Assembly (NCBI GenBank): GCA_026390815.1
Contig: JAPLFH010000040.1
Location: 62,001 to 126,000 of the forward strand
DNA length: 64,000 nt
Direction: 5' to 3'
Source of the DNA: Ignavibacteriales bacterium
GTDB lineage: Bacteria; Bacteroidota; Ignavibacteria; Ignavibacteriales; SURF-24
In this document: piece by piece, positions 46,861-54,981 of the stretch
Position numbering within the stretch: position 1 is the stretch's first letter
Layout: each line of letters starts with the position of its first letter
Made by a program: the position numbers and the translations under genes
The notes under the pieces: model-generated
Told to the model about the DNA's origin: nothing
The model's input: only the letters and a program-made list of their open reading frames with translations
Databases searched by the model: none

Positions 46861-47385
46861 ATGGTTTCCCAAATTCCAAAAGAATCGGTTGAATATTGTG
46901 GTTATTATCAATCACCGGTTGGTGTTATAGAAATTATATCCTCAGAAACCAGCATCATTTCCATATCGTTCCTGCGAAATGATAAATCTAAACCAGAAAA
47001 TAAAAATGACATTCTTGATTATTGTATTGTTGAGTTGGATAAATATTTCAAAGGTGAGTTGACTGAATTCTCAAGCAGGTTAAGTTTAGGTGGAACAATT
47101 TTTCAGCAAAAAGTATGGAAGGAATTAATGAAAATTCCGTTTGGACAAACCATATCATATTTGGATTTAGCCAAAAGAACAGGTGATATAAAAGCTGTAC
47201 GGGCAGTTGGATTGGCGAACGGTAAAAACAAAATTCCTATCATCATTCCGTGTCATCGCGTTATTGGGAGCAATGGAAATCTAATAGGTTATAGCGGAGG
47301 GTTGTGGATTAAGGAATGGCTGTTAAATCATGAAAGAAAATTTTCATCGAATCAAGAAACAGGAAACCAATTAAACCTTTTTTGA
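46861..47385 (+). CDS. ogt: Methylated-DNA--protein-cysteine methyltransferase
   Basis: This DNA-repair protein removes alkyl groups from O6-alkylguanine. The acceptor cysteine is C131 in PCHRVIGSNG. The helix-turn-helix core has FQQKVWKELMKIPFGQTISYLDLA near residues 81-104, and the N-terminal domain begins CGYYQSPVGVIEI. At 174 residues it fits the Ogt form without an Ada-type domain. It follows serA by 5 nt and is probably carried on its transcript. Confidence 0.92.
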   Translation: MVSQIPKESVEYCGYYQSPVGVIEIISSETSIISISFLRNDKSKPENKNDILDYCIVELDKYFKGELTEFSSRLSLGGTIFQQKVWKELMKIPFGQTISYLDLAKRTGDIKAVRAVGLANGKNKIPIIIPCHRVIGSNGNLIGYSGGLWIKEWLLNHERKFSSNQETGNQLNLF

Positions 47386-47668: not shown

Positions 47669-47774
47669 CTTAACTCCTTTAAGATATTTGGAAGATTATC
47701 TTTTACTTTGCACAAAAATAATACAACTTTAATTTGATAGTTTCAATGCTGCATTTTATAGTTTTTATGGAATT

Positions 47775-47804
47775 TTGAAAACTTAAAAATTTTTTATAAC
47801 TTTG
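47775..47804 (+). promoter_or_regulatory. Bacteroidota-type promoter of the his operon
   Basis: TTTTG at 47773-47777 (TTG at 47775-47777) is followed, after a 19-nt spacer, by TAACTTTG at 47797-47804, a full match to the TAnnTTTG -7 element. Transcription would begin near 47808-47811, only a few bases before the leader-peptide ATG at 47815. The leader mRNA would thus have almost no 5' untranslated region. Confidence 0.75.
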
Positions 47805-47814
47805 TAACAGTATT

Positions 47815-47910
47815 ATGAAGACCAAATCAGTAAATATTATTAGTTCTGTTAAACCGATGATTCATCATCATCATTTAAATTTCCCACTTGGTGGTGTCGG
47901 TTTGTTTTAA
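47815..47910 (+). CDS. hisL: His operon leader peptide
   Basis: A 31-codon ORF (ATG 47815, TAA 47908-47910) has four consecutive CAT His codons at 47863-47874, encoding MIHHHHLNF. Such runs are the hallmark of his attenuators: a ribosome waiting for His-tRNA stalls here. The codons lie ahead of a hairpin-terminator array and of hisG. The start directly follows the promoter, so translation is probably leaderless or nearly so. The peptide has no role beyond regulation. It is too short for normal gene prediction. Confidence 0.9.
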   Translation: MKTKSVNIISSVKPMIHHHHLNFPLGGVGLF

Positions 47911-47963
47911 GTAAAGTTCAATACGCAAAATAGAAAGCCCCGACACAAAATCGGGGTTTTTTA
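47863..47963 (+). promoter_or_regulatory. Transcription attenuator of the his operon
   Basis: Three alternative pairings can be read. The His codons CATCATC (within 47863-47874) can pair with GGTGGTG (47890-47896). GTGTCGG at 47894-47900 is the exact reverse complement of CCGACAC at 47940-47946, making the antiterminator. CCCCGA (47938-47943) pairs with TCGGGG (47951-47956) followed by TTTTTT, making the terminator. The last two share bases 47940-47943 and are exclusive. Stalling at His codons would free GGTGGTGTCGG and favour read-through when histidine is scarce. Confidence 0.85.
47938..47962 (+). terminator. Rho-independent terminator of the his leader
   Basis: A 6-bp GC-rich stem CCCCGA/TCGGGG with a 7-nt loop (CACAAAA) is followed by six T. 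The ATG of hisG is 28 nt downstream. Confidence 0.9.
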
Positions 47964-47989
47964 GTTTTAAACACTTTGAGGAAAGAAAA

Positions 47990-48859
47990 ATGGAAAATGG
48001 AAATCTTAAATTAGCACTTCAGAAAAAAGGCAGGCTTTCGGATAAATCTCTTGAACTTCTTAGACATTGCGGCTTGGATATAGAAACTTATTCGGAAAGA
48101 TTGATAGTTTCTGCGCGTAACTTTAAAATTGATTTACTTTTCCTCCGCGATGATGATATACCTGAATACGTTCAGGATGGTGTAGCTGATATTGGTATTG
48201 TTGGTGAAGATGTTTTATTTGAAAAGCAGGCGGAAGTTATAATTAATGAAAAACTTGGATTTGGAAGATGCCGGTTGATGATTGCAGCACCGAATGATTC
48301 CGTTCCGGATTCAATTAAGGCATTGTCCGGAAAAACAATTGCCACATCTTATCCAAACATTTTAAAAAAATATTTAAACGAAAACTTAATTAATGCTAAA
48401 GTAATTGAAATCAGTGGATCGGTGGAAATTGCTCCTTCGCTTGGTGTGGCTGACCTGATTTGTGATATTGTTTCCACCGGTACAACCTTAATGATGAATA
48501 AACTTAAAAAATCATTTGTTGTTTTTGATTCTGAAGCTGTTTTAATTTCCAATAAAAGTTTAAAAGAAGATGACGAAAAATTCCAAACGCTTAACAATCT
48601 TTTAATAAGAATCCGTTCGGTTTTATTAGCCAAAAATTCTAAATACCTGATGATGAATGTACCTAAAGAATCACTTACAGAAATAATTAATGTTATTCCT
48701 TCGCTAAAAAGTCCAACTGTACTTAGCTTAGCTGATGGTAATTCTCTGGCGGTTCATGCGGTTATTCCATCGGATCAGTTCTGGAAGATAGTTGGTGACC
48801 TGAAAAATGCCGGAGCATCAGGAATTCTTTTATTACCTATTGAGAATATGATAATATGA
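47990..48859 (+). CDS. hisG: ATP phosphoribosyltransferase, long form
   Basis: HisG joins ATP and PRPP in the first step of histidine synthesis. The 289 residues are the long form: catalytic domains with KLALQKKGRLSDKSLELL, GVADIGIVGEDVL and the PRPP loop ISDIVSTG-like LICDIVSTGTTL, and an ACT-like HisG_C domain from about residue 215 (NVPKESLTEIINVIPSLKSPTV) that binds histidine. No HisZ is needed. ATG 47990 follows TGAGGAAAG. It is 28 nt from the leader terminator and overlaps hisD by 4 nt. Confidence 0.95.
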   Translation: MENGNLKLALQKKGRLSDKSLELLRHCGLDIETYSERLIVSARNFKIDLLFLRDDDIPEYVQDGVADIGIVGEDVLFEKQAEVIINEKLGFGRCRLMIAAPNDSVPDSIKALSGKTIATSYPNILKKYLNENLINAKVIEISGSVEIAPSLGVADLICDIVSTGTTLMMNKLKKSFVVFDSEAVLISNKSLKEDDEKFQTLNNLLIRIRSVLLAKNSKYLMMNVPKESLTEIINVIPSLKSPTVLSLADGNSLAVHAVIPSDQFWKIVGDLKNAGASGILLLPIENMII

Positions 48860-50148
48860 AAACTTACGAACTTAAAAACCTGAATCCTGAAGAGCGGGAA
48901 AAACTACTTAAACGACCGGCAATAAATCTTGATGACACGTTAAGTATTGTTAAACCAATTCTAAGCGACATAAAAGAAAATGGATTGCAAGCTGCATTAA
49001 AGTACGCTGAACTTTATGATGGCTTTTCTTCAGACGATATTCTTGTTTCAACTAAAGAATTTGAATCTGCAGAAATTAACCTGGACGAAAAAATTAAAGA
49101 TGCTATAAAATCAGCGGCACGCAATATTGAATTTTTCCATCGTAATCAAATTCCAAAAGATTATGAAGTTGAAATGATGCCCGGAGTTCGCTGTTCAAGA
49201 GAATTCAGAGCAATTCAGAATGTAGGTTTGTACATTCCTGGTGGTAACGCTGTTCTTCCTTCAACAATGCTTATGCTTGGTATTCCAGCAAAGCTTGCTG
49301 GTTGCAAAAGAATTGTTGTCTGTTCACCGGCAAAAGATGGTAAAATAAATAATGCTTTACTTTTTGCAGCCAAGTTAATTGGAATAAATGAATTTTATAA
49401 ACTTGGCGGAGCGCAGGCAATTGGATTGATGGCTTACGGAGATGCCAACTTCAAAAAAGTTGATAAAATATTTGGTCCTGGGAATCAGTACGTAACAGCG
49501 GCAAAACTTCTTGTAAGTATTGATTTATCCGGTTGCACAATAGATATGCCCGCTGGTCCAAGTGAAGTTTTAATAATTGCTGATGAAAGTGCAAACCCGG
49601 CTTTTATTGCTGCCGATCTGCTTTCGCAGGCAGAGCATGGAAGTGATTCCCAAGTAATTCTCATCAGTAATTCGTCTTTAATTATTCAGCAGGTTCAAGT
49701 TGAGATTGCTGAGCAAATAAAAGGTTTATCACGTCAAAAATTTGCTGCTGATTCCCTCAATTCATCTTTCTCCTTACTTGTTGAAAATATTGATGATGCA
49801 TTTTTGTTTTCAAATGAATATGCTCCTGAGCATTTAATCCTTCATATTAATATGGCGGAAAATTATAAAATGAATGTGATTAATGCCGGCTCAATATTTC
49901 TGGGAGAGTACTCACCGGAAAGCGCTGGCGATTATGCTTCAGGAACAAATCACTCATTACCGACTTATGGTTATGCAAAATCAATTAGCGGCGTTTCAGT
50001 AGAGAATTTTATGAAATCAATAAGTTTTCAAAAATTAACAAGAAGAGGCTTGAAGGGATTAGCAAATACAGTAGAAACTTTAGCGGAAGTGGAAATGCTT
50101 GGTGCGCACAAAAATGCTGTTACAATAAGGATAAAGAAAAATGATTGA
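48856..50148 (+). CDS. hisD: Histidinol dehydrogenase
   Basis: HisD carries out the last two oxidations, histidinol to histidine, with NAD and zinc. Typical blocks are NVGLYIPGGNAVLPSTMLMLGIPA-type residues 118-135, the LGGAQAIGLMAYG segment, FGPGNQYVTAAK, DMPAGPSEVLIIAD and LLSQAEHGSDSQ (zinc and catalytic Gln/His). The closing SVENFMKSISFQKLTRRG is also standard. At 430 residues it is the normal length. It overlaps hisG (ATGA) and hisC (8 nt). Confidence 0.95.
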   Translation: MKTYELKNLNPEEREKLLKRPAINLDDTLSIVKPILSDIKENGLQAALKYAELYDGFSSDDILVSTKEFESAEINLDEKIKDAIKSAARNIEFFHRNQIPKDYEVEMMPGVRCSREFRAIQNVGLYIPGGNAVLPSTMLMLGIPAKLAGCKRIVVCSPAKDGKINNALLFAAKLIGINEFYKLGGAQAIGLMAYGDANFKKVDKIFGPGNQYVTAAKLLVSIDLSGCTIDMPAGPSEVLIIADESANPAFIAADLLSQAEHGSDSQVILISNSSLIIQQVQVEIAEQIKGLSRQKFAADSLNSSFSLLVENIDDAFLFSNEYAPEHLILHINMAENYKMNVINAGSIFLGEYSPESAGDYASGTNHSLPTYGYAKSISGVSVENFMKSISFQKLTRRGLKGLANTVETLAEVEMLGAHKNAVTIRIKKND

Positions 50149-51187
50149 AAACTTAGTTAGAGAAAATATCAGGAAGTTGAAACCTTATACTTCAGCGAGA
50201 GATCAGTATTCGGAAGGTATCCTGCTTGATGCAAATGAAAATGGATTAGGTACAACAGTTGAAGAATTTGCATTTCTTGAATTAAACAGGTATCCGGATC
50301 CCCATCAAAAAGAATTAAAAAAAGCTGTGGGGAATTATTACAATATTCAGAAAGAATCTCTTTTCTTTGGTGTTGGTTCAGATGAAATCATCGATCTTTT
50401 GATTAGAATATTTTGTGAACCAACCAAAGACAAAGCAATGATTCTTGATCCAACTTACGGAATGTACAAAGTTGCCTGCGATATAAATAATGTTGAAACC
50501 ATTTCCATCGATTTGAATCCCGACTTTCAAATTGATTTGGATGCTGTTAAGGCAAACTTTAATTCAACAATTAAAATGTTATTTCTTTGTTCACCAAATA
50601 ATCCAACTGGAAATCTTTTAAACAGGGAAGACATATTGAAACTATGTTCAATGTTCAATTCAATTGTTGTGGTTGATGAAGCATATATTGACTTTGCAAA
50701 AGATAATACGCTAATTCAGGATGTAAAAAATTTTCCTAACCTTGTAATTCTCCGGACTTTTTCTAAAGCCTGGGGCTTGGCAGGGATAAGGCTCGGTTTC
50801 TGCATTGCCAATTCGGAAATAATTAATTTCTTGTTTAAAGTGAAAGCACCCTATAACATTAACACGCTTACCCGCTACGCTGTTTTAAAAGCGATTGAAA
50901 ATAATAAAAAGAAAGACGAATTTGTAATGCGCCTGATTTCTGAAAGAGAAAGAGTTAAATTTGAATTGCAGAAAATATCCGGTATAAATAAAATATTTCA
51001 TTCTGATGCAAACTATCTTTTATTCACGTGTAAGAATGCAAAACGAATACAGAAAAAATTAGCTGACGAAGGAATAATAATCAGAGACAGAAGCTCTTAC
51101 CGGATGCTTGAGGATTGCCTGCGTTTATCAATTGGAACAGTAGAAGAGAATAATAAATTTTTGGAAGCAATAAAGAAGTTGTTATGA
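50141..51187 (+). CDS. hisC: Histidinol-phosphate aminotransferase
   Basis: HisC is a PLP enzyme that makes L-histidinol phosphate. The PLP lysine is in RTFSKAWGLAGIRLGF, and PNNPTGNLLNRED, VVDEAYIDFA and DANENGLG are typical of class I aminotransferases of the HisC group. At 348 residues it is complete. It overlaps hisD upstream by 8 nt and hisB downstream by 4 nt. Confidence 0.94.
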   Translation: MIENLVRENIRKLKPYTSARDQYSEGILLDANENGLGTTVEEFAFLELNRYPDPHQKELKKAVGNYYNIQKESLFFGVGSDEIIDLLIRIFCEPTKDKAMILDPTYGMYKVACDINNVETISIDLNPDFQIDLDAVKANFNSTIKMLFLCSPNNPTGNLLNREDILKLCSMFNSIVVVDEAYIDFAKDNTLIQDVKNFPNLVILRTFSKAWGLAGIRLGFCIANSEIINFLFKVKAPYNINTLTRYAVLKAIENNKKKDEFVMRLISERERVKFELQKISGINKIFHSDANYLLFTCKNAKRIQKKLADEGIIIRDRSSYRMLEDCLRLSIGTVEENNKFLEAIKKLL

Positions 51188-52086
51188 ATAAAGTAACCAT
51201 TGACAAGAATTTTTTCGATTTCAATTTGCAAGAAGCTTCCGGTTTAATAAGCGGATTGAAGAAACTTGCACAGAAAAATTTTGTAATTGAAGTTAAAGAC
51301 TTCGAACCGGATGAGTTGATGAAAAAAATTTTATTGAGCGAAGGAATTTCGATTAATCAAAAACTGGAAAAAGAAAGCTCATTCAAAGCAAAATATTTTA
51401 TAAGCAAAGCTGAGCAAAAACTTAATGATTATAAAACCATCGTTGTTTCCCAACAGTCAGAAATAAAATCCTTTGAGCAGGCAATTGAAAAAATCAACAG
51501 TTCGTTAAGAACAGCATCCGTAAATCGTGTTACAAAAGAAACAGATATTAAGATAAAACTTTCGCTTGATGGCGGCGCAAAATCGAAAATAAAAACCGGT
51601 GTTGGCTTTTTCGATCATATGCTTGAACAGATAGCCAAGCATGCAAATATCAATTTGAACATAGCTGTTAAAGGTGATCTTGAAGTAGACGAACATCATA
51701 CAGTTGAGGATGTTGGGATTGCACTCGGTACTGCTTTGAACGAAGCGCTTGGTGATAAGAAAGGAATTAAACGCTATGGTTTTTTTCTTCCAATGGATGA
51801 ATCGATTGCCAGATGTGCAGTTGATCTTGGTGGAAGAAGCAGTTTGAATTTTAAATGCAAATTTAAACGCGAAAAAGTCGGTGACTTTCCAACAGAATTA
51901 ACCGAAGAATTTTTCAGAGGATTGGCTTCCGGGCTTAAAGCAAATATTTTTTTGCGAGCAAAAGGTAAAAATGATCATCACAAAATTGAAGCAATGTTTA
52001 AAGCATTCGCCAAATCGTTGAACGAAGCTTGCAGAATTGATGAACGAAGTGAAGGAAGTCTTCCATCAACAAAAGGAGTTATATGA
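51184..52086 (+). CDS. hisB: Imidazoleglycerol-phosphate dehydratase with a degenerate N-terminal HAD-like extension
   Basis: HisB dehydrates imidazoleglycerol phosphate. The C-terminal domain from about residue 109 is intact: GVGFFDHMLEQIAKH, EVDEHHTVEDVGIALG (metal His), KRYGFFLPMDESIARCAVDLGGR, KGKNDHHKIEAMFKAFAKSL and the ending SLPSTKGVI. In the bifunctional HisB the first 165 residues are a HAD phosphatase with DxDGT. Here about 108 residues replace it; GLISGLKKLAQKNFVIEV and KNDYKTIVVSQQSEIKSFEQAI recall a shrunken HAD, but DxD and the other catalytic residues are absent. This activity must come from elsewhere. Confidence 0.9.
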   Translation: MNKVTIDKNFFDFNLQEASGLISGLKKLAQKNFVIEVKDFEPDELMKKILLSEGISINQKLEKESSFKAKYFISKAEQKLNDYKTIVVSQQSEIKSFEQAIEKINSSLRTASVNRVTKETDIKIKLSLDGGAKSKIKTGVGFFDHMLEQIAKHANINLNIAVKGDLEVDEHHTVEDVGIALGTALNEALGDKKGIKRYGFFLPMDESIARCAVDLGGRSSLNFKCKFKREKVGDFPTELTEEFFRGLASGLKANIFLRAKGKNDHHKIEAMFKAFAKSLNEACRIDERSEGSLPSTKGVI

Positions 52087-52667
52087 TTGCGCTGATTGAT
52101 TACGGAGCGGGAAATACGGCTTCGGTGGCTAATGCACTTAGAACTCTAAAACAGGAATTTATTCTAACCAATAGTGAGGTGGAAATTTGCAAAGCAGATA
52201 AAGCAATCTTTCCTGGTGTGGGAGAAGCATCGTATGCTATCAGACAGTTGCATAAATATAATTTGATCAACCTTCTCCGGATAATCAAACGCCCCATCCT
52301 TGGTATATGTCTTGGTATGCAGTTGCTGGCAGATTATTCTAAAGAAGGAAATGTTTCTTGTCTCGGAATAATTCCAGGCATAATTGAAAAGTTTGATTCT
52401 TCAAAAGTAACAGTTCCACATATGGGTTGGAACGAAGTATTTCAAATCAAAAAAAGTCCGTTGTTCGATGGAATAAAGGATGGAGAATTCTTTTACTTTG
52501 CACATTCCTATTTATTTTCTTTAGGTGAAAGTACAACTTCTAAAACAAATCATGGAATCGATTTTTCTGCTTCAGTCGAAAAGGAAAATTACTTCGGTGT
52601 GCAGTTTCATCCGGAAAAATCTGGTGATGCAGGATTAAGAGTTCTAAAGAATTTTATTGAATTATGA
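52083..52667 (+). CDS. hisH: Imidazole glycerol phosphate synthase, glutamine amidotransferase subunit
   Basis: HisH supplies ammonia to HisF. The class I amidotransferase triad is visible: Cys in GICLGMQLL, His and Glu in FHPEKSGDAG. The oxyanion and interface regions include YGAGNTASVANAL near the start and PHMGWNEV. At 194 residues it is complete. It overlaps hisB by 4 nt, and a 141-nt gap with a repeat follows before hisA. Confidence 0.94.
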   Translation: MIALIDYGAGNTASVANALRTLKQEFILTNSEVEICKADKAIFPGVGEASYAIRQLHKYNLINLLRIIKRPILGICLGMQLLADYSKEGNVSCLGIIPGIIEKFDSSKVTVPHMGWNEVFQIKKSPLFDGIKDGEFFYFAHSYLFSLGESTTSKTNHGIDFSASVEKENYFGVQFHPEKSGDAGLRVLKNFIEL

Positions 52668-52682
52668 AGAGCGTGATCTCAA

Positions 52683-52760
52683 ACTTGATCTTAATTGTTC
52701 TCTTAATCTTACTCAGCATTTTCTTTTGAAAAAAGAGTAAGAACAAGATTAAGAGTAAAA
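52683..52760. repeat. Dispersed intergenic repeat, copy 3, inside the his operon
   Basis: The left part (52683-52714) is rich in CTTAATCTT and TGTTCTC; the right part (52735-52760) holds GAGTAAGAACAAGATTAAGA. TCTTACTC at 52707-52714 is the exact reverse complement of GAGTAAGA at 52735-52742, forming a hairpin with a 20-nt loop. The AAGAACAAGATTAAG core also occurs, inverted, at 10994-11042. Confidence 0.6.
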
Positions 52761-52808
52761 CATAATCTTTCTTTTTTTGTAAGAATAAATAAATATTTTT
52801 TAATAACT

Positions 52809-53528
52809 ATGATAGTAATTCCAGCAATAGACATATTTCAAAACAAAATTGTCCGTCTTCGGCAAGGAGAATTTGACAAAATTGAATACTATCCAAATTC
52901 GCCATTACACCAGGCAAGGATTTTTGATGAATTCGGATTTGAGTGGTTGCACCTGGTTGATCTTCTTGGTTCAAAATCCGGAGAAATATCTGTTAAAGAT
53001 TTAATTGGAGAAATAAAATCTGAAACCAATTTAAAGATTGAGTTTGGAGGTGGAGTTAGAAATAGTGAAAATGTTTCTGAACTTTTATCTTTGGGAGTTG
53101 ATAAAGTAATTATCGGTTCTCTATCTATTCAAAATAAAAATGAGTTTGTAAAGATTACTGAAAAATTTGATGTTGAAAAAATTATTGTTGCCGCAGATGT
53201 TAAAAACGAAAAAGTAGTTATAAAAGGTTGGACAGAGCAAACATCTATCTCCATCTTTGATCATATAGAATATTGTAAAGAAATTGGAGTAGTAACTTTT
53301 TTGTGTACAGATATATCAACAGATGGAATGTTGACAGGTGCAAACAGAACACTTTATGAGAAAATTCTTAAGAAAGAACCGGGAATTAAATTAATTGCTT
53401 CCGGTGGCATTAAAGATTTACAAGATGTAATTGCTGTAAAAAACACAAATATATTTGGCGTTGTAATTGGAAAAGCAATCTATGAAAATAAGATTGATTT
53501 GAAGGAGCTGGTAAAAATTGGTAAGTAA
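52809..53528 (+). CDS. hisA: ProFAR isomerase
   Basis: HisA is an Amadori isomerase with a TIM barrel. The catalytic Asp residues are D8 in VIPAIDIF and a second in [19 protein letters not shown] and GGGVRN are the phosphate-binding regions. At 239 residues it is normal. The gene sits 141 nt after hisH with a hairpin repeat between, and its end overlaps hisF by 11 nt. Confidence 0.94.
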
Positions 53529-54273
53529 AAGAATCATCCCTTGCCTTGATGTTAAAGATGGAATTGTTGTAAAAGGAACAAACTTTGTCAATCTTGTAGA
53601 AGCCGGAGATGCAGTTGATTTAGCAAAAAGATATGTTCTGGAAGGTGCAGATGAATTAGTATTCCTGGATATAACTGCTTCGGTGGAGAAAAGAAAAATA
53701 TTAATTCATCTTGTAGAAGAAGTTGCACGCGCTATTCAAATTCCATTTACAGTTGGTGGTGGCATTACTGATTTATACGATATTGAAAATTTATTAAAAG
53801 CCGGCGCTGATAAAGTATCATTAAATTCTTCTATTGTTAAAGATCCTTCGTTAATTTCCAGAGCCGCAAAGCAAGTTGGCAGCCAGGCTGTAGTTGCTGC
53901 TATTGATGTTAAATCAGTTAATGGTAAGTATAAAGTATTTGTTAAAGGTGGAAGAGAGGAAACAGAATTGGAAGGTTTTGAATGGTGCTGGCGTGCAGCC
54001 GATTTAGGTGCTGGAGAAATTCTTTTAACTTCGATGGATAAAGATGGAACCAAAAGTGGATATGACAATATATTTCTTAAAAAATTGAAAGAGTTGGTAA
54101 GCATTCCGGTCATCGCAAGCGGTGGAGCTGGAAGAAAGGAGGATTTCCTGGATACATTTAGAAAAACAGATGTTGATGCATGTCTTGCTGCAAGCCTTTT
54201 CCATTTTGATATTTTGAAAATAAGAGATTTGAAAAATTACTTGAATGAAAATAATATTAAAGTCAGATTATAA
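53518..54273 (+). CDS. hisF: Imidazole glycerol phosphate synthase, cyclase subunit
   Basis: HisF forms the imidazole ring. The catalytic Asp pair is visible, in [11 protein letters not shown] and in AIDVKSVNG. The barrel also has [15 protein letters not shown] and [18 protein letters not shown]. Start is TTG 53518, chosen because the family begins two residues before [15 protein letters not shown] at 53501-53506 is about 11 nt upstream. It overlaps hisA by 11 nt. At 251 residues it is complete. Confidence 0.94.
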
Positions 54274-54372
54274 ACAGTGGTGCTTGAAGCGGGATTCCAA
54301 ACTTCAGTTAACATTTCCACTTTCCAACTCAAAGTATCCGAAAACCAGAATCAAAAAACTTAATAAAAAACT

Positions 54373-54981
54373 ATGATTGAATTAGAACAACTCAATTTTG
54401 TAAAATTAAACGGACTAATACCGGCAATAGTAACCGATAATAGAAACGATAAAATTCTAATGCTAGGATTTATGAATAAGGAATCCTTACAAAAAACTAT
54501 TGAAACAAAACTGGTTACGTTTTACAGCCGAACAAGGAAATCCCTTTGGGTAAAAGGAGAAACCTCTGGAAATTATCTTAGGCTGGTTGATATTAAAGCT
54601 GATTGCGATAACGATTCGCTGCTTGTTTCTGCGCTGACAGATGGTCCAACTTGCCACACAGGAGATTATTCTTGTTTTAATTTGGAAAAAACTGAATCGC
54701 TTGAATTCCTAACAACTCTTTTTAATTTGATTAAAAAAAGAAAAGTTGATCTTCCCCCAAATTCATATACGACTAAATTGTTTGAGGATGGCGAGAACAG
54801 AATCATTCAAAAAGTCGGGGAGGAAGCAATTGAAACGGTTATAGCGGCTAAGAATCACGATAAGAAAGAAATAATAAATGAAGTGTCTGACCTGATCTAT
54901 CATCTCTTTGTTATGCTTGCAAATCAGGAAATAGAAATTTCTGATATTGTAAAGAATCTGCAGGACCGTCATATTAAATGA
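54373..54981 (+). CDS. hisI: Bifunctional phosphoribosyl-AMP cyclohydrolase/phosphoribosyl-ATP pyrophosphatase
   Basis: The N-terminal cyclohydrolase domain (about 1-115) has TRKSLWVKGETSGNY, the zinc and magnesium residues DCDNDSLL and GPTCHTGDYSCF. The C-terminal pyrophosphatase domain (about 120-200) has KVGEEAIETVIAAKN and EVSDLIYHLFVML, the EExxE/ExxD metal-binding helices. The fusion, 202 residues, is common in Bacteroidota and Enterobacteria. It lies 99 nt after hisF and is the last his gene. Confidence 0.94.
   Translation: MIELEQLNFVKLNGLIPAIVTDNRNDKILMLGFMNKESLQKTIETKLVTFYSRTRKSLWVKGETSGNYLRLVDIKADCDNDSLLVSALTDGPTCHTGDYSCFNLEKTESLEFLTTLFNLIKKRKVDLPPNSYTTKLFEDGENRIIQKVGEEAIETVIAAKNHDKKEIINEVSDLIYHLFVMLANQEIEISDIVKNLQDRHIK

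What the first reader, a model, noticed from the sequence alone, without database searches (positions are those of the whole stretch)
47773..47963. Histidine-codon leader peptide and attenuator upstream of hisG in a Bacteroidota-type genome
The sequence shows a promoter, a 31-codon leader with four adjacent His codons, and an antiterminator (47894-47900 with 47940-47946) that excludes a terminator (47938-47956 plus six T). The His codons can also pair with GGTGGTG just upstream of the antiterminator arm, so a stalled ribosome would release it. This mirrors the enterobacterial his attenuator but has different sequences and a nearly leaderless start. Such attenuators are best known from proteobacteria; I am not aware of a description in Ignavibacteria.
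Basis: partly seen in the sequence, partly recalled or inferred. Interest (0 to 1): 0.78.

Follow-up and report, generated by a model that had tools for sequence, protein, structure and literature searches.

The report
Histidine-sensing attenuator before his operon
Just before the histidine-making genes lies a tiny gene packed with histidine codons, followed by a genetic stop signal, so the cell can turn the pathway on only when histidine runs short; the mechanism is classical, but it proves conserved across a bacterial phylum where it is hardly described.

Summary
Upstream of a complete hisGDCBHAF-IE operon lie a Bacteroidota-type promoter, a 31-codon leader ORF with four adjacent His codons, and three competing pairings: protector 1:2, antiterminator 2:3 and intrinsic terminator 3:4.

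Comparative tests:
- 56 of the 58 closest named hisG loci (Ignavibacteriales and relatives) carry both a His-rich short ORF and a terminator. Only 1 of 54 control upstream regions had a His-rich short ORF.
- The antiterminator and terminator helices, which share an arm, both show compensatory changes and beat slid controls.
- Antiterminator and protector duplexes are more stable than shuffles across 58 leaders. Arm 2 sits where a ribosome at the leader stop codon would cover it.
- TTG-N17-22-TAnnTTTG precedes 37 of 68 leaders (1.0 expected).

Rfam's proteobacterial His_leader does not match. In mechanism this is classical ribosome-mediated attenuation. Leader-peptide attenuation has been inferred before in Bacteroidota (Flavobacterium psychrophilum) and proposed for Firmicutes his operons, so the novelty is modest. 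The same genome also carries trp, thr and ilv leaders. An anonymous family, f27, has His leaders without a recognisable terminator, hinting at a Rho-dependent variant. Histidine dependence itself is untested.

The parts
47774..47804 (+). Bacteroidota-type promoter: TTTG (-33 box, 47774-47777), 19-nt spacer, TAACTTTG (-7 box, 47797-47804); start site predicted near 47808
   Evidence: Sequence. TTG-N17-22-TAnnTTTG found upstream of 37 of 68 homologous leaders, 1.0 expected from shuffles. Start site itself is inferred.
47815..47910 (+). Leader ORF, 31 codons plus stop: MKTKSVNIISSVKPMIHHHHLNFPLGGVGLF
   Evidence: Translation; 56 of the 58 closest named hisG loci have an equivalent His-rich ORF plus terminator.
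47863..47874 (+). Regulatory codons: four adjacent CAT (His)
   Evidence: Sequence; relatives have 3-6 His in a cluster with both CAT and CAC (214:57), so the amino acid rather than the triplet is kept.
47852..47874 (+). Segment 1 (protector): AACCGA and the His codons, pairs with segment 2
   Evidence: MFE and centroid fold; 1:2 duplex more stable than shuffled in the window (p=0.007) and over 58 leaders (Wilcoxon 1.4e-10).
47890..47902 (+). Segment 2: GGTGGTGTCGGTT, antiterminator 5' arm; [quoted passage not shown]
   Evidence: Core GTGTCGG 47894-47900 pairs with 47940-47946; 2:3 helix conserved with compensatory changes.
47938..47946 (+). Segment 3: CCCCGACAC, shared 3' arm of the antiterminator and 5' arm of the terminator
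   Evidence: Sequence.
47938..47962 (+). Intrinsic terminator: CCCCGA-CACAAAA-TCGGGG then TTTTTT
   Evidence: Sequence; 95.3% of cells paired over 56 leaders with compensatory changes.
47990..48859 (+). hisG, first gene of the regulated operon
   Evidence: PF01634 and PF08029.
48856..54981 (+). hisD, hisC, hisB, hisH, hisA, hisF, hisIE, same strand downstream
   Evidence: Pfam matches and ORF layout.

Best explanation
This is a ribosome-mediated transcription attenuator that sets his operon expression by the supply of charged tRNA-His. RNA polymerase starts near 47808 and a ribosome loads on the almost leaderless AUG. When His-tRNA is plentiful the ribosome reads through the four His codons to the stop at 47908 and covers segment 2 (47890-47902); segment 3 then pairs with segment 4 and transcription ends at the T run before hisG. 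When His-tRNA is scarce the ribosome stalls on the His codons and occupies segment 1; segment 2 is then free to pair with segment 3, the terminator cannot form, and the operon is transcribed. If no ribosome loads, segments 1:2 form early and the terminator forms by default. The anatomy and the conservation of each pairing are shown; stalling, termination and the histidine response are inferred.
For: Anatomy is exact. 56 of the 58 closest named hisG loci have both a His-rich short ORF and a terminator, against 1 of 54 control upstream regions with a His-rich ORF. The 2:3 helix has 88.5% of cells paired, against 6-58% when slid by 1-3 columns, and 19 cells changed on both sides, against 7.1 shuffled. 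The 3:4 helix has 95.3% paired, against 35-58% slid, and 28 such cells, against 3.7. Over 58 leaders 2:3 and 1:2 duplexes are stronger than shuffled (Wilcoxon 4.6e-11 and 1.4e-10). Geometry is constant: arm 2 starts a median 13 nt before the stop codon and 30 nt after the first His codon. Freeing arm 2 by stalling at the first His raises predicted P(2:3) from a mean of 0.52 to 0.84, with a rise in 59 of 66 leaders. Downstream genes are the complete his pathway.
Against: There is no expression data. The compared leaders are related, so their number overstates independent events. For the window itself, equilibrium folding of RNA ending at 47950 favours 2:3 even without a ribosome (P = 0.99), and in the full leader the terminator wins even with the ribosome stalled at the first His (P = 0.95); the switch therefore has to be kinetic (co-transcriptional), as in known attenuators, and this was not modelled. 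The 2:3 helix of the window alone reaches only p = 0.093 against shuffles.
Confidence: 0.93

Rival explanations
1. The hairpin is a plain terminator that insulates hisG from upstream transcription, and the His codons are incidental.
For: An intrinsic terminator is present and an unrelated gene (46861-47385, O6-methylguanine methyltransferase) is transcribed towards it.
Against: The terminator lies downstream of a promoter that reads into hisG. The His-rich ORF recurs before hisG in 56 of the 58 closest loci but in only 1 of 54 control regions. The terminator arm covaries with a second, exclusive partner.
Confidence: 0.02
2. The leader ORF acts by translational coupling or re-initiation, delivering ribosomes to hisG, rather than by attenuation.
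For: Short ORFs close to a start codon can raise translation; in Bacteroidetes the excess is at 11-14 nt (PMC4833913).
Against: The leader stop is 79 nt from the hisG start with a strong terminator in between. The His cluster and two covarying helices are not explained.
Confidence: 0.02
3. The peptide itself works in trans, for example as a metal-binding His-rich peptide or a regulator, and only shares a transcript with hisG.
For: His-rich peptides bind metals; a leader peptide with a trans role is published for S. meliloti trpL (PMC7298713, seen as title and abstract).
Against: Outside the His cluster the peptides differ in length and sequence, and the C-terminal residues follow from the RNA pairing arm (GCCGGT gives Ala-Gly). 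Cognate codon runs also precede trpE (Trp) and thrA (Thr) in the same genome.
Confidence: 0.02

Closest known systems
Enterobacterial his operon attenuator (hisL; Rfam RF00514 His_leader)
   Same: His-codon run in a short leader ORF before hisG, exclusive protector, antiterminator and terminator pairings, same regulated operon.
   Different: No match to RF00514 even at E up to 10. Four His instead of seven in a row (enterobacterial number from memory). Bacteroidota promoter with a predicted 5' UTR of about 7 nt and no Shine-Dalgarno. Segment 2 lies inside the leader ORF.
His attenuators of Firmicutes (B. cereus group, Peptostreptococcaceae, Erysipelotrichales; PMC9413887)
   Same: Leader with 3-5 His codons in a row, terminator and antiterminator before the his operon; no RF00514 match.
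   Different: Different phylum and sequences. That paper proposes that the B. cereus group acquired its attenuator independently.
Leader-peptide attenuators inferred in Flavobacterium psychrophilum (PMC9723704)
   Same: Same phylum in the sense of GTDB; 'strong clues' for leader-peptide attenuation before amino-acid operons; a structured 5' element before hisG conserved in Flavobacteriaceae with no Rfam hit.
   Different: The passages read do not describe Ignavibacteria and give no pairing model for hisG. Terminator sequences differ between families of the phylum.
Proteobacterial survey of amino-acid attenuators (Vitreschak et al. 2004, FEMS Microbiol Lett 234:357)
   Same: From memory, its abstract mentions candidate attenuators in some Bacteroidetes/Chlorobi.
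   Different: The text is not held, so which genes and species were covered could not be checked.

Membership tests
Ribosome-mediated (leader-peptide) transcription attenuator | Short translated ORF with a run of codons for the operon's end product | tested here: met
   Four adjacent His codons; conserved cluster in relatives. Translation itself not shown.
Ribosome-mediated (leader-peptide) transcription attenuator | Intrinsic terminator between leader ORF and first structural gene | tested here: met
   47938-47962; conserved and covarying.
Ribosome-mediated (leader-peptide) transcription attenuator | Antiterminator that excludes the terminator | tested here: met
   47894-47900 with 47940-47946; conserved with compensatory changes.
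Ribosome-mediated (leader-peptide) transcription attenuator | Protector pairing 1:2 that is broken by a ribosome on the regulatory codons | tested here: met
   Window p=0.007; 58 leaders Wilcoxon 1.4e-10, though only about a third reach p<0.05 singly.
Ribosome-mediated (leader-peptide) transcription attenuator | Segment 2 covered by a ribosome at the stop codon and free when it stalls on regulatory codons | tested here: met
   Arm 2 starts a median 13 nt before the stop and 30 nt after the first His, inside and outside a standard footprint respectively (footprint size from general knowledge).
Ribosome-mediated (leader-peptide) transcription attenuator | Read-through rises when charged tRNA-His falls | not testable with these tools
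   Needs expression data.
Rfam RF00514 His_leader (proteobacterial family) | Match to the covariance model | tested here: not met
   Absent from all matches to E=10 on 47700-48100; no gathering-level match on ten relatives.
T-box (His-specific) | Match to the T-box model | tested here: not met
   No T-box match at gathering level or to E=10.

The most novel reading that the evidence does not exclude
Leader-peptide attenuation is an old, phylum-wide mode of amino-acid control in Bacteroidota (GTDB sense), with leaderless or nearly leaderless leader ORFs, and its termination step has diverged. Most families use unrelated intrinsic terminators. At least one family (anonymous f27) keeps a leader with 9-11 His codons ending one to four codons before the stop, with no recognisable intrinsic terminator; what follows its stop codon is a C-rich, G-poor stretch (25% C, 5.5% G), which would fit control of Rho access by a ribosome stalled at the end of the leader.
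Probability: 0.35. Interest if true: 0.62.

Novelty: new member of a known kind. Interest (0 to 1): 0.42.

Why it matters
It shows that the textbook his attenuator logic operates, by all comparative signs, in a lineage with a different promoter type and no Shine-Dalgarno-led translation. It is one of a set (his, trp, thr, ilv) in the same genome. It gives a ready list of leaders for annotation and an Rfam-style model, and a testable case of how one sensing device keeps its logic while its RNA sequences and perhaps its termination mode change.

Tried and rejected
RF00514 and other Rfam families were tried and do not match; Trp_leader at 21 bits is far below its cut-off and reflects shared hairpin layout. 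The first scan of relatives wrongly suggested that half lacked the leader, because loci on the minus strand had not been turned; corrected. One genome search used a guessed accession that turned out to be another enzyme, and its loci served only as controls. pheA in this genome showed no Phe leader by the scan used. In the MAFFT alignment a few leaders with a shifted pairing register lower the 2:3 score; they were left in.

Full report
What is there. The region before hisG (47990) contains, in order, TTTG-N19-TAACTTTG (47774-47804), the ORF 47815-47910 with four adjacent CAT codons (47863-47874), segment 2 GGTGGTGTCGGTT (47890-47902) at the end of that ORF, and a C/G hairpin with six T (47938-47962). 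Downstream are hisG, hisD, hisC, hisB, hisH, hisA, hisF and hisIE on the same strand, identified by Pfam.

Chance. None of 3000 dinucleotide shuffles of the 250 nt before hisG gave a short ORF with four adjacent His codons, and 0.7% gave 3 His in 6. No other short ORF in the 64 kb window has four adjacent His. Of 54 upstream regions of other genes or domains in the same group of genomes, one had a His-rich short ORF.

Relatives. HisG of the window was searched in 39 related genomes (30 with hisG) and in GTDB species genomes (80 named loci). After turning minus-strand loci, 28 of the 30 relatives had a His-rich short ORF ending 64-112 nt before hisG and a hairpin with a T run. Of the other two, one (L014) was not turned correctly by the script but appears intact as L047, and one (L028, the same as L086) has neither. 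Of the 58 closest named loci (Ignavibacteriales, Melioribacteraceae and relatives), 56 have both; L032 has the peptide but no hairpin by the rule used, and L086 has neither. More distant named loci (Chitinophagaceae, Sphingobacteriales, Pedobacter) have the peptide with unrelated or weaker hairpins.

Pairings. Across relatives the antiterminator changes in step: GTGTCGG/CCGACAC (window), TGCCGG/CCGGCA, GGCGCCGG/CCGGCGCTT, GTACCGG/CCGGTAC, ATCGGGG/CCCCGAT. On a MAFFT alignment of 56 leaders, made without regard to structure, the 2:3 helix has 88.5% of cells paired, against 6-58% when slid, and 19 cells changed on both sides, against 7.1 in shuffles. The 3:4 helix has 95.3% paired, against 35-58% slid, and 28 such cells, against 3.7. 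The two helices share an arm, so both being kept is the signature of a switch. Sequences are related, so these counts are not independent events. With fixed windows chosen without reference to pairing, 2:3 and 1:2 duplexes are stronger than dinucleotide shuffles over 58 leaders (Wilcoxon 4.6e-11 and 1.4e-10); for the window, 1:2 has p = 0.007 and 2:3 p = 0.093.

Geometry and mechanism. Arm 2 begins a median 13 nt before the leader stop and 30 nt after the first His codon. A ribosome at the stop would cover it and one stalled at the His codons would not. Predicted P(2:3) in RNA truncated before the terminator's 3' arm rises from a mean of 0.52 to 0.84 when RNA up to the first His is masked (59 of 66 leaders rise). 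In the window itself 2:3 is strong in truncated RNA with or without a ribosome, while full-length RNA prefers 1:2 plus 3:4. The decision must therefore be kinetic, which is inferred and not modelled.

Promoter and start. TTG-N17-22-TAnnTTTG occurs within 110 nt before the first His codon in 37 of 68 leaders, 1.0 expected. The -7 box lies 10-12 nt before the leader ATG in the window and most of its nearest relatives, about 21-30 nt in many Melioribacteraceae, and 4 nt in several Chitinophagaceae-like loci. Taking the usual position of this box near -7, the window's 5' UTR would be about 7 nt and the last group would be leaderless. Start sites are inferred.

Distribution in the phylum. 198 genomes of the phylum were searched and 60 further upstream regions were taken out, making 73 with the auto-fetched loci. 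His-rich leaders with a terminator occur in families f20, f22, f25, f29, part of f32, and one same-class family (f7). They are absent from the sampled members of f4, f10, f19, f21, f23, f28, f34 and f37, and ambiguous or mostly absent in f26, f33 and f35. In f17 and Pedobacter the hairpin is AT-rich and fell below the rule. In f27 the sequences examined have a His-rich leader; 13 were aligned and show no conserved hairpin. There the last His is one to four codons before the stop, and the following stretch is 25% C and 5.5% G, against 19% and 20.5% further upstream. These genomes are anonymous. A Rho-dependent reading is a hypothesis only.

Same genome, other operons. trpE is preceded by MKRNKTYYFNFTINFWWFTINTLT and a terminator (found in 11 of 11 genomes with trpE), thrA by MKIKATHITGSTTMHTTTPTPFTG with an antiterminator of -16.1 kcal/mol, and ilvD by an Ile/Leu/Val-rich ORF with a strong downstream helix but no T run. 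The his leader is one of a set.

Known work. His attenuators are described in proteobacteria and proposed in Firmicutes (PMC9413887). Leader attenuators are also described in Actinobacteria (PMC1262725). For Bacteroidota, F. [quoted passage not shown] thetaiotaomicron has short ORFs 'reminiscent of leader peptides' (PMC7366714). A 2010 survey knew of leader-peptide systems only in Proteobacteria and Actinobacteria besides its own Bacillus find (PMC2965389). The 2021 study of his genes in this superphylum mentions attenuation only for enterobacteria (PMC8305728). No paper on Ignavibacteria was found; subscription papers, including Vitreschak 2004, could not be read.

Verdict. The element is a real, conserved his attenuator that works like the enterobacterial one but is not a member of Rfam RF00514. 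It is a new member of a known kind with a firm comparative case; interest is moderate, mainly for its phylum-wide spread and the possible terminator-less variant.

Noticed in passing
L245:3720-3794 (- strand), same genome, before trpE: Trp leader peptide MKRNKTYYFNFTINFWWFTINTLT followed by a terminator; equivalents before trpE in all 11 genomes searched that have it, most with a conserved Tyr (often T-Y-Y) ahead of the Trp codons.
   Followed up: partly
L238:1667-1741 (+), same genome, before the bifunctional thrA: Thr-rich leader MKIKATHITGSTTMHTTTPTPFTG with a terminator and a -16.1 kcal/mol antiterminator pairing; relatives also carry Met codons in the run.
   Followed up: partly
L238 (- strand, leader stop near 1308), same genome, before ilvD: Ile/Leu/Val-rich leader (VSNSIKYTPSVIVLGISIILALIAIISIIG) with a strong conserved GGTCAATCCCTAA/TTAGGGGTTGACC helix but no T-run terminator; conserved in eight genomes. 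How it would act is unexplained.
   Followed up: partly
L129, L131, L133, L136, L142, L147, L155, L158, L159, L165, L167, L172, L173 (anonymous family f27): hisG leaders with 9-11 His codons running almost to the stop codon, often a GTG start just after a -7 box, no conserved hairpin, and a C-rich, G-poor stretch after the stop: possible Rho-dependent attenuation.
   Followed up: partly
L104, L105, L106, L096, L108 (Pedobacter) and L126, L130: Highly conserved His leader followed by an AT-rich hairpin (GTTTTG-TACTT-CAAAAC with T run in some) that standard terminator rules miss.
   Followed up: no
window 51184-52086: HisB has the IGPD domain only at residues 138-279; the first 137 residues match no Pfam family.
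   Followed up: no
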